The notes under the pieces: generated by a model
The model's input: the letters and a program-made list of their open reading frames with translations, nothing else
What the model was told of the DNA's origin: nothing
Databases searched by the model: none
Shown here: positions 4,637 to 8,239 of the stretch, piece after piece
Numbering within the stretch: the stretch's first letter is position 1
Layout of the letters: the number at the start of each line of letters is the position of its first letter
Assembly: GCA_027064085.1 (NCBI GenBank)
Contig: JAMOQH010000133.1
Span: 1 to 8,239, forward strand
DNA from: a bacterium
GTDB taxonomy: Bacteria; UBP6; JAFGXH01
Length of the DNA stretch: 8,239 nucleotides
Direction of reading: 5' to 3'
Position numbers and translations under genes: made by a program

Positions 4637-5668
4637 ATGATTAAAAAAGGTGATTTTTATGGATTTCATAGAGTTTTAAATGAAACAGGCGTTTTACCAC
4701 AGGGAGCCAAGAAACTGAATAATGATTTTTCAATTAAATATGATAATGAATATCTTATTGAAGTTGAAAAACTAAATATAGATGCAGCTTCTTTTAAGCA
4801 AATCAAAGAATCTGTTAATTCAGATAAAGAAGCCATGAAAACCAAAATCATGCAAATAGTGGAAGAAAAAGGAAAAATGCAAAATCCAGTTACAGGAAGT
4901 GGTGGAGTTTTAATAGGAACTATCACTTATGTTGGTGAAAATATTAAAACTCCTCAATTTAAAATTGGAGATAAAATTGTAACTCTCGTTTCTTTGAGCT
5001 TAACTCCATTAAAACTTGATGAAATTACAGATATTGACTTAACAAAAGATAGAGTTTTTGTTAAAGGTACTGCAGTATTATTTGAATCTGGTATAGCATC
5101 AGTAATAGACCCAAATTTACCAGAATCATTATCAATGGCTCTTCTTGATGTTGCAGGAGCACCAGCCCAAACTAAAAGATTAGTAAAAAAAGACCAAGAT
5201 TTAGTGGTTTTAGGAACAGGTAAATCAGGATTATTAGTTATTGCACAAGCAAAAAAACAAATAGGAAATGGTAAAATTATTGCAATAGATTTATTTGACA
5301 CTAATAAAGATTTTTTATTGAAAAATAACTATGTTGATCATTTTGTTGTTGCAAATGCTAAAAAACCAGTTGAAGTATATAATAAAATCAAAGAATTACT
5401 GCCTGAACTTGCTGATTTAGTTATTAATACCGCTAATGTTCCAGATACAGAAATGGCATCAATTATGCCTGTAAAAGATGAAGGAATAGTATATTTATTT
5501 AATATGGCATCAAATTTTCAAAAAGCAGCACTTGGAGCAGAAGGAGTTGCAAAAGATATTACTATTATCGTTGGAAATGGCTATGCAAAAGGACATGCTA
5601 AAACGACTTATGATTTAATCAAATCAGATGATATATTAAAAGATTTTTTCATGAATAGATATAATTAA
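4637..5668 (+). CDS. kdd: L-erythro-3,5-diaminohexanoate dehydrogenase
   Basis: NAD-dependent cytosolic enzyme of lysine fermentation (EC 1.4.1.11). It oxidatively deaminates L-erythro-3,5-diaminohexanoate to 5-amino-3-oxohexanoate, ammonia and NADH, the step before the 3-keto-5-aminohexanoate cleavage enzyme. At 343 residues it has family length. Family landmarks are the N-terminal YGFHRVLNETGVLPQ (8-22), KMQNPVTGSGGVLIG (80-94), LSLTPL (120-125), LFESG (148-152) and DVAGAPAQTKRLV (171-183). A Rossmann dinucleotide site GTGKSG (193-198) is followed by IIAIDLFD. The ATG is fixed by the GGGGAG ribosome site 6 bases upstream. The last codons (FFMNRYN, stop) lie inside a 121-bp repeat that recurs after the next gene. 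No kamA, kamDE, kce or kal gene is in the window, so the gene stands outside the usual pathway cluster. Confidence rests on these motif matches recalled from the family. Confidence 0.9.
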   Translation: MIKKGDFYGFHRVLNETGVLPQGAKKLNNDFSIKYDNEYLIEVEKLNIDAASFKQIKESVNSDKEAMKTKIMQIVEEKGKMQNPVTGSGGVLIGTITYVGENIKTPQFKIGDKIVTLVSLSLTPLKLDEITDIDLTKDRVFVKGTAVLFESGIASVIDPNLPESLSMALLDVAGAPAQTKRLVKKDQDLVVLGTGKSGLLVIAQAKKQIGNGKIIAIDLFDTNKDFLLKNNYVDHFVVANAKKPVEVYNKIKELLPELADLVINTANVPDTEMASIMPVKDEGIVYLFNMASNFQKAALGAEGVAKDITIIVGNGYAKGHAKTTYDLIKSDDILKDFFMNRYN

Positions 5669-5763
5669 TTCACTCCACCCACCTCCGTGGGTTCTAATCT
5701 CTTATTTGTAAAATAATACTTATTTATTTAACTTATTATTACTTTTTGTCATAAACGAAAATA
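5643..5763 (+). repeat. 121-bp direct repeat, copy 1, overlapping the kdd 3' end
   Basis: It matches 7514-7634 without gaps at 113 of 121 positions; the 113-bp core from the ATG at 5651 differs at only 6. All eight differences are transitions. It starts within the last nine kdd codons, includes the stop and the hairpin at 5677-5692, and ends sharply at CATAAACGAAAATA. Both copies have the same orientation, with starts 1,871 bp apart, and bracket the reductase gene. Confidence 0.9.
5677..5692 (+). terminator. Terminator-like hairpin after kdd
   Basis: A 6-bp stem ACCCAC / GTGGGT with loop CTCC starts 9 bases after the kdd stop and is followed by the pyrimidine-rich tail TCTAATCTCTT. It is GC-rich against the background. 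In the second repeat copy the outer A-U pair has become G-U, so the stem can still form. The U tract is broken, so this is either a weak intrinsic terminator or a 3'-end stabilising stem. Confidence 0.5.
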
Positions 5764-7349: not shown

Positions 7350-7365
7350 ATTTTTTTATTCTCGA

Positions 7366-7393
7366 ATTATACACAACAAATGTATAAACACAA
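7366..7393 (-). promoter_or_regulatory. Promoter of the disulfide reductase gene
   Basis: On the minus strand, TTGTGT (7393-7388), a 16-bp spacer and a consensus TATAAT (7371-7366) sit about 58 bp upstream of the ATG. They would give a leader of about 50 bases that includes the AGGAG ribosome site. The -35 box falls inside the palindrome at 7385-7402, so a protein bound there would compete with or contact RNA polymerase. Confidence 0.65.
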
Positions 7394-7405
7394 TTGTGTT
7401 TACAC
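7382..7405. promoter_or_regulatory. Palindromic operator on the reductase -35 box
   Basis: TAAACACAATTGTGTTTA (7385-7402) is a perfect 18-bp palindrome. After one mismatched pair, two more pairs (GT / AC) extend it to 24 bp (7382-7405). It has no loop, so it is better read as a dimeric protein site than an RNA hairpin. A third half-site ACACAA occurs at 7371-7376, next to the -10. Placement on the -35 suggests repression, perhaps in response to redox state or oxygen given the gene product. The motif does not match the Rex, FNR, Fur or PerR consensus I know. Confidence 0.6.
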
Positions 7406-7457
7406 CACTAATACGGTCGTCCAAGAACAATTATATATATATTATTTTATTTATCAC

Positions 7458-7507
7458 AAACTCCCTACCAAGTGCTTAATTGACTATATAACTTGTTTTT
7501 AAAAAAA
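7458..7507 (+). repeat. Degenerate repeat A, left copy
   Basis: AAACTCCCTACCAAGTGCTTAAT ... TATATAACTTG aligns with 7717-7769 with small gaps. The clearest shared blocks are AACTC-CT, CCAAG, CTTAAT and the exact 11-mer TATATAACTTG. The pair flanks copy 2 of the 121-bp repeat. It lies in the 491-bp gap at 7309-7799, where I see no coding frame. Confidence 0.5.
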
Positions 7508-7513
7508 TCAATT

Positions 7514-7634
7514 ACTTTTTTATGAGTAGATATAATTAATTCACTCCGCCCACCTCCGTGGGTTTTAGTCTCTCATTTGTAAAATAATATTTATTTATTT
7601 AACTTATTATTACTTTTTGTCATAAACGAAAATA
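7514..7634 (+). repeat. 121-bp direct repeat, copy 2, carrying a kdd tail remnant
   Basis: Second copy of the repeat at 5643-5763. It includes codons for FFMSRYN and the TAA stop (7516-7539), matching the kdd C-terminus FFMNRYN. Upstream of about 7514 nothing resembles kdd, so this is a detached 3' end rather than a whole second gene. The terminator-like hairpin recurs at 7548-7563 (GCCCAC, loop CTCC, GTGGGT). Beyond 7634 similarity stops. Confidence 0.88.
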
Positions 7635-7799: not shown

Positions 7800-8006
7800 T
7801 TAGTTATCTTCTGTATTTAACTCTTTTTGTAATTCTTTGATTTTTTCTATAGATAATTTGGTAGCTTTTGATACGAATATAGGTTCTGAACCTAATTTTA
7901 ACATCTCAATTGCGGTTTCTATTTTTGCTTTTTCTATACCCTTTTCTATACCTTTTTTCTCTCCTCTTTCTTCAATTTCATTAATCAATCTCATCATTCC
8001 ACCCAT
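7800..8006 (-). CDS. Putative intragenic small protein from rpn (RpnS-like antitoxin candidate)
   Basis: In frame with the rpn reading frame, the ATG at 8006-8004 would produce a 68-residue protein, MGGMMRLINEIEERGEKKG to KELNTEDN. It is preceded by GAGGAGG (8018-8012) with a 5-base spacer, the best Shine-Dalgarno match I see in the window. In E. coli, several rpn genes also express their C-terminal part from an internal start, and the short product inhibits the toxic full-length nuclease. The size, position and ribosome site here fit that arrangement. Expression and antitoxin activity are inference. Confidence 0.45.
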   Translation of the reverse strand: MGGMMRLINEIEERGEKKGIEKGIEKAKIETAIEMLKLGSEPIFVSKATKLSIEKIKELQKELNTEDN

Positions 8007-8239
8007 GTTATCCTCCTCATTTAAAGTTTTTAGAGCTTCTTTAATATTTATTCTATCACTTGATATTAATTTAACAAATTTATTAATTTTATCAAGCATT
8101 ATTAATTCTTTTTCTTTGTCATAACCTGATAATATTTGCTTTATTTTTAATATTATTTCGTCTAAGTCTTCTTGATTTATTTCTTTATTGTCAGTTGCTA
8201 AAATATTACTCAATAAATTATCTATCGCTTTTAAGTCTT
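7800..8239 (-). CDS. Rpn-family recombination-promoting nuclease / putative transposase, C-terminal part
   Basis: The last 145 or so codons of a PD-(D/E)XK-type Rpn protein are visible; the frame stays open to the window edge (DLKAIDNLLSNILATDNKE...), so the nuclease domain and start are outside. A TTG at 8213 is an internal leucine, not a start. The recognisable part is the charged tail: EIEERGEKKGIEKGIEKAKIETAIEM, the KGIEKG-type repeat that marks this family, then KLGSEPIFVSKATKLSIEKIKEL, a helix-turn-helix-like end. Two 12-bp units (7929-7940 and 7941-7952, 11 of 12 identical) encode the KGIE repeats and could expand or contract. Rpn proteins are DNA endonucleases linked to RecA-independent recombination and, in E. 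coli, to phage defence. An internal start with a perfect ribosome site lies within this fragment. Confidence 0.8.
   Translation of the reverse strand, partial: DLKAIDNLLSNILATDNKEINQEDLDEIILKIKQILSGYDKEKELIMLDKINKFVKLISSDRINIKEALKTLNEEDNMGGMMRLINEIEERGEKKGIEKGIEKAKIETAIEMLKLGSEPIFVSKATKLSIEKIKELQKELNTEDN
8007..8018 (-). promoter_or_regulatory. Perfect internal Shine-Dalgarno site in rpn
   Basis: Minus-strand GAGGAGGATAAC directly before ATG. It is encoded by the codons for Glu-Glu-Asp-Asn. Both Glu codons are GAG although about three quarters of Glu codons in this fragment are GAA; using GAA would weaken the site. This suggests, but does not prove, selection for internal initiation. Confidence 0.5.

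What the first reader, a model, noticed from the sequence alone, without database searches (positions are those of the whole stretch)
7800..8018. Rpn nuclease gene with a built-in internal start: candidate intragenic toxin-antitoxin / phage-defence module
The sequence shows AGGAGG, 5 bases and ATG in frame within the rpn 3' region, giving a 68-residue C-terminal protein. Two adjacent rare-type GAG codons create the site. Known for the family: E. coli rpn loci make a short C-terminal form from an internal start that neutralises the toxic long form and allows phage defence. Finding the same architecture in a distant AT-rich lineage would suggest that it is a general property of Rpn proteins.
Basis: partly seen in the sequence, partly recalled or inferred. 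Interest (0 to 1): 0.72.

Follow-up and report, generated by a model that had tools for sequence, protein, structure and literature searches.

The report
Conserved internal start inside rpn gene
A bacterial DNA-cutting toxin gene carries a second ribosome-binding site inside itself that should make its own antidote from the gene's tail; this is the already published Rpn design, shown here by sequence comparison to be kept in this distant lineage and across one nuclease family, but not in a sister family with the same tail.

Summary
On the minus strand, AGGAGG (8017-8012), 5 nt and ATG (8006-8004) lie in frame in an rpn gene (PF04754 type, cut by the contig end) and open a 68-residue C-terminal ORF. 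It is not chance. The genome has about 20 rpn copies. In all 16 3'-complete copies the two codons that make AGGAGG end in G, although the first encodes Glu, Lys or Gln and G-ending codons are otherwise 5-15%. Only these 2 of 52 comparable columns behave so. Among 54 non-redundant PF04754 proteins, internal SD strength exceeds synonymous shuffles (Stouffer Z 6.4), and the site is built in at least two codon frames. Starts proven in E. coli lie at the same boundary. The 68-mer is modelled as a three-helix domain that superposes on the E. coli antitoxin RpnA-S (7TH0: 46/46 residues, 1.5 A). So it is very probably an RpnL/RpnS intragenic toxin-antitoxin. Zhong et al. 2023 described this for E. coli and C. 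difficile: a new member of a known kind. Added here: the PF12784 'Rpn' family mostly shares the tail domain but shows no such signal. Antitoxin activity and phage defence are inferred.

The parts
7800..8239 (-). 3' part of an rpn gene (Rpn / Transposase_31 type), 145 codons visible, cut at its 5' side by the contig end
   Evidence: TIGR01784 hit E 5e-11; full-length near-identical copies hit PF04754
8012..8017 (-). internal Shine-Dalgarno AGGAGG made by codons GAG-GAG-G
   Evidence: conserved in all 16 3'-complete own-genome copies analysed
8004..8006 (-). internal start codon ATG (GTG in paralogue L012)
7800..8006 (-). predicted RpnS (antitoxin) ORF, 68 aa plus stop
7929..7952 (-). four-residue repeats GIEK x2 in helix 1; copy number varies between paralogues
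   Evidence: begins at residue 19 of the short form, as in the published family (8-20)
7809..7883 (-). two C-terminal helices of the three-helix domain
   Evidence: model helices 42-49 and 53-66; superposes on 7TH0

Best explanation
The gene is an rpn of the Transposase_31 (PF04754) family that makes two proteins from one gene. The main start gives RpnL, a PD-(D/E)XK DNA nuclease with a helical tail. The internal AGGAGG/ATG gives RpnS, the 68-residue tail alone. By the E. coli precedent, RpnS dimerises through helix 1, whose four-residue repeat number sets partner specificity, binds the same tail on RpnL and blocks its DNA cleavage until a trigger such as phage infection shifts the balance. 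Shown here: the in-frame site, its conservation beyond amino-acid constraint, its position at the verified E. coli boundary, conserved nuclease residues in the full-length copies, and the similarity of the tail to RpnA-S. Inferred: that the short protein is made, that it neutralises RpnL, and that the pair defends against phage.
For: Codons -4 and -3 end in G in 16/16 own-genome copies while residue -4 is Glu 6, Lys 6, Gln 4; these are the only 2 of 52 Glu/Lys/Gln-rich columns that do so, mean 16%. Copies only 36% identical keep AGGAGG-N5-ATG; L012 keeps it with GTG. 54 non-redundant PF04754: best internal SD energy -9.9 against -7.0 kcal/mol in synonymous shuffles, Z 6.4, p 6e-11. The SD is built as nnG-GAG-G (67 proteins), GGA-GGn (14) and in one convincing case AGG-AGG. 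E. coli rpnA, B, C and E show the site at the same place; RpnA M244 is the proven start (PMC10327210). RpnS profile without E. coli finds 7TH0, E 7.5e-5. Model pLDDT 90, three helices, 7TH0 at 1.5 A over 46/46 residues. Residues matching RpnA D63, E82, Q84 conserved (mutants in PMC5350276). Three copies with the nuclease core deleted keep site and tail ORF.
Against: No expression or activity data. The own-genome copies are related, so 16/16 is fewer than 16 independent events. Single-gene shuffle p-values are mostly modest (0.005-0.3); the strength is in the pooled test. About 10 of 54 PF04754 proteins lack a strong site. The structural Z of 6.4 is tied with TrpR-like helical proteins and is not specific alone. 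The model was made without an alignment and only one of its five runs was confident. The nuclease half of this copy is off the contig.
Confidence: 0.85

Rival explanations
1. The short form is made but is not an antitoxin of its own long form: it is a structural partner or a decoy of RpnL, or acts mainly on other rpn copies in the cell.
For: In E. coli RpnA the native complex is L2S2 (PMC10327210); this genome has many tails of differing repeat number, so cross-talk is conceivable.
Against: In E. coli the short form blocks growth arrest, SOS induction and DNA cleavage, specifically for its own long form and repeat number (PMC10327210).
Confidence: 0.08
2. The motif is a by-product of an acidic linker: Glu-Glu-Asp before a Met makes AGGAGG-like sequence by chance, with no initiation.
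For: Glu/Gly-rich linkers raise the chance; synonymous shuffles still average -7 kcal/mol.
Against: GAG is 8-15% here, yet G-ending is 100% at exactly the two SD codons and includes AAG and CAG; pooled excess over shuffles p 6e-11; other codon frames used; PF12784 proteins with the same tail show no excess.
Confidence: 0.04
3. Decaying repeat family: the site is invariant only because the copies are young duplicates, and the genes are non-functional.
For: Several copies are broken or deleted (L023, L024, L026, L031).
Against: Divergent copies (36-45% identity) and other genera keep the site while synonymous sites elsewhere vary; deleted copies keep the tail ORF.
Confidence: 0.03

Closest known systems
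E. coli RpnL/RpnS intragenic toxin-antitoxin (rpnA-E, RpnP2; PDB 7TH0; Zhong et al. 2023, PMC10327210)
   Same: PF04754 nuclease; internal SD and start at the same boundary (RpnA AAG-GAG-AGT-TTA-ATG; here GAG-GAG-GAT-AAC-ATG); tail with variable four-residue repeats starting 8-20 residues after the start; three-helix tail superposable on 7TH0
   Different: Distant AT-rich lineage; longer first helix and tail (68 against 49 residues); about 20 copies in one genome; function untested
C. difficile rpn tested in E. coli by the same authors (PMC10327210)
   Same: Internal start gives a short C-terminal protein, lost on mutating SD and start
   Different: A different organism here; no experiment
PF12784 (PDDEXK_2) 'Rpn family' proteins, TIGR01784
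   Same: PD-(D/E)XK nuclease family with, in 35 of 47 examined, the same helical tail domain; present in the same genome
   Different: No excess of an internal SD-start over synonymous shuffles

Membership tests
Rpn / Transposase_31 (PF04754) nuclease | Full-length protein matches PF04754 | tested here: met
   Full-length own-genome copies L009, L012, L022: E 1e-27 to 3e-25; the window copy is cut and shows only the tail (TIGR01784 E 5e-11)
Rpn / Transposase_31 (PF04754) nuclease | Catalytic D63, E82, Q84 of RpnA | tested here: met
   KDLLW...IEFQS aligned with RpnA SDVLW...IEHQS in full-length copies; not visible in the window copy itself
RpnL/RpnS intragenic toxin-antitoxin | In-frame internal SD and start at the nuclease/tail boundary | tested here: met
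RpnL/RpnS intragenic toxin-antitoxin | Four-residue repeats starting 8-20 residues after the internal start, number varying between copies | tested here: met
   GIEK from residue 19; number varies among paralogues from one or two to about nine
RpnL/RpnS intragenic toxin-antitoxin | Short form folds as the RpnA-S three-helix domain | tested here: met
   Profile hit to 7TH0 E 7.5e-5; model 1.5 A over 46/46 residues, Z 6.4, Z alone not specific
RpnL/RpnS intragenic toxin-antitoxin | Short protein is produced and neutralises the toxic long form | not testable with these tools
   needs expression
RpnL/RpnS intragenic toxin-antitoxin | Phage defence | not testable with these tools
   needs phage challenge; PADLOC gave only a weak hit to the tail
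PF12784 (PDDEXK_2) Rpn | Nuclease domain matches PF12784 | tested here: not met
   Full-length copies of this subfamily hit PF04754, not PF12784

The most novel reading that the evidence does not exclude
The intragenic antitoxin start is an old, nearly universal feature of the PF04754 nuclease family: selection holds a ribosome-binding site inside the coding sequence in different codon frames across phyla. The sister PF12784 'Rpn' nucleases kept the same tail domain without the start, so they are either not self-neutralising or are neutralised in trans, perhaps by RpnS proteins of PF04754 copies in the same genome.
Probability: 0.55. Interest if true: 0.55.

Novelty: new member of a known kind. 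Interest (0 to 1): 0.4.

Why it matters
It gives strong comparative evidence that the gene-within-a-gene antitoxin described in E. coli is under selection at the nucleotide level in distant bacteria, and it predicts which 'Rpn' proteins should and should not make one. Annotation pipelines miss these short proteins. A genome with about 20 copies of differing repeat number is also a natural set for testing whether repeat number sets toxin-antitoxin specificity.

Tried and rejected
The single genome-contig scan found only 2 relatives and a viral-contig scan none, so relatives came from the genome search. Direct PDB sequence search with the single 68-mer or the full protein gave nothing useful; the alignment profile did, though its top hits are repeat proteins scored by summed weak repeats. 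Foldseek alone gave no E below 0.001 and its printed rows did not show 7TH0; VIA-align did. sigma-70-like sites in the region are no more than chance, so an internal promoter as in E. coli could not be tested. Flanks of the copies share only tens of bases to about 190 nt, so no mobile-element ends. The host phylum was not named: only two relatives came with record titles, both uncultured genomes.

Full report
What is there. The window is a complete contig (G000:C133, 8239 bp) of an AT-rich genome of 3.65 Mb in 195 contigs. Its right end lies inside a minus-strand rpn gene, of which the last 145 codons are visible. The stated motif is exactly there: GAG-GAG-GAT-AAC-ATG, AGGAGG at 8017-8012, 5 nt, ATG at 8006-8004, then 68 codons to the stop at 7802-7800. 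It is the only AGGAGG-N5-ATG in the window (0.04 expected). The other window genes are ftsK, a Na/alanine symporter, L-erythro-3,5-diaminohexanoate dehydrogenase and a CoA-disulfide-reductase-like flavoprotein.

The organism's own copies. The genome holds about 20 relatives of this tail and further rpn-like genes. In every copy where the region is present the codons read [GAG|AAG|CAG]-GAG-GA[T|C]-AA[A|C]-[ATG|GTG]. Codon usage makes this telling: G-ending codons are 8% (Glu), 13% (Lys) and 27% (Gln) in the window's other genes, and 15%, 14% and 5% in the rest of the rpn copies. In an alignment of the 16 3'-complete copies, 52 columns are rich in Glu, Lys or Gln; only two are G-ending in every sequence, and they are the two codons that make AGGAGG. 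The first encodes Glu in 6, Lys in 6 and Gln in 4 copies. So the amino acid changes while the ribosome-binding site stays. One divergent copy has GTG in place of ATG. AGGAGG is a working start signal in this organism: AGGAGG-N4-8-ATG occurs 303 times against 67 for the reversed control, and rpn main starts carry AGGAGG.

Beyond the genome. In the same phylum, PF04754-type genes of other genera have GGAGG with a 5-nt spacer before ATG at the same boundary. In more distant phyla the site is again there, often as GGA-GGn-(E/D)-x-ATG. For each protein the strongest SD-start 35-115 codons from the C-terminus was compared with 200 synonymous-codon shuffles. For 54 non-redundant PF04754 proteins the mean was -9.9 against -7.0 kcal/mol (Stouffer Z 6.4, p 6e-11). 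For 30 non-redundant PF12784 proteins it was -5.7 against -5.2 (Z -1.5). A strong site (-8.5 or better) occurs in 44 of 54 against 8 of 30 (Fisher p 1.2e-6). The contrast holds within one phylum (13 of 17 against 6 of 18, p 0.018). The core GGAGG sits in the frame nnG-GAG-G in 67 proteins, GGA-GGn in 14, and AGG-AGG convincingly in one (L135; a second case is a weak GAGG match): different amino acids, same nucleotides. In 35 of 47 PF12784 proteins the tail domain itself is present (the profile includes repeat-rich sequence, so marginal hits may be inflated), so the internal start follows the nuclease family, not the tail.

Link to tested systems. The four E. coli K-12 rpn genes fetched show the site at the aligned place: rpnA AAG-GAG-AGT-TTA-ATG (M244), rpnB AAG-GAG-AAA-CTG-ATG, rpnE AAG-GAG-AGA-TTA-ATG, rpnC GGA-GGG-GAG-TCT-ATG. 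In RpnA, K240, E241 and M244 were mutated to abolish the short protein, and RpnS blocks RpnL in growth, SOS and DNA-cleavage assays (PMC10327210). A profile of tails without E. coli finds RpnA-S, PDB 7TH0 (E 7.5e-5); hhalign with E. coli RpnA-S gives 94% probability. The 68-mer alone is modelled at pLDDT 90 as a long helix and two short ones, and superposes on 7TH0 at 1.5 A over all 46 residues (Z 6.4, which by itself is not specific for helical folds). The repeats start at residue 19 of the short form, within the published 8-20. Residues aligned with RpnA D63, E82 and Q84, needed for RpnA activity (PMC5350276), are conserved in full-length copies.

Nuclease-deleted copies. L008, L010 and L015 lost the catalytic core by in-frame deletions with 9-14 nt overlap at the joints and keep the internal SD, start and tail ORF. 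This fits spare antitoxins, like the separate rpnS genes of E. coli, or simply loss of a toxic part. It is inference.

Verdict. The motif is real and selected. The best reading is an RpnL/RpnS intragenic toxin-antitoxin. The mechanism and its wide conservation were proposed in 2023, including a Gram-positive case, so the kind is known. What this work adds is a comparative test at the nucleotide level and the PF04754/PF12784 split, for which no earlier report was found in the open-access library searched. Expression, neutralisation and phage defence remain untested here.

Noticed in passing
window 5645-5763 and 7516-7634: A 119-bp stretch is present twice in the window at 94% identity, once across the end of the diaminohexanoate dehydrogenase gene and once in the rpn/flavoprotein intergenic region; it contains a GCCCACCTCCGTGGGT hairpin followed by TTTTAG.
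   Followed up: partly
window 7365-7523: A dispersed intergenic repeat of about 150 bp with CACAATTGTG palindromes, four other copies at 71-75% in the genome; two lie upstream of or at the start of PF12784 rpn-like genes (C188, C30).
   Followed up: partly
L008, L010, L015 (own genome C151, C159, C102): Three rpn copies have lost the nuclease core by different in-frame deletions with 9-14 nt overlap at the joints, all keeping the internal start and tail.
   Followed up: partly
window 8239, and ends of contigs such as C10, C52, C116, C118, C123, C148, C149, C170: Many contigs of this genome end inside or very near rpn or rpn-like genes, so the repeat family breaks the assembly and most copies are seen in halves.
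   Followed up: no
L047 and L079 (PF04754 copies in the window's family): Divergent PF04754 copies with a charged coiled-coil tail lacking G-x-x-x-G repeats still have a near-perfect internal SD (AGGAGGTGATATG; AGGAGGAGGATATG) before MFF.
   Followed up: partly
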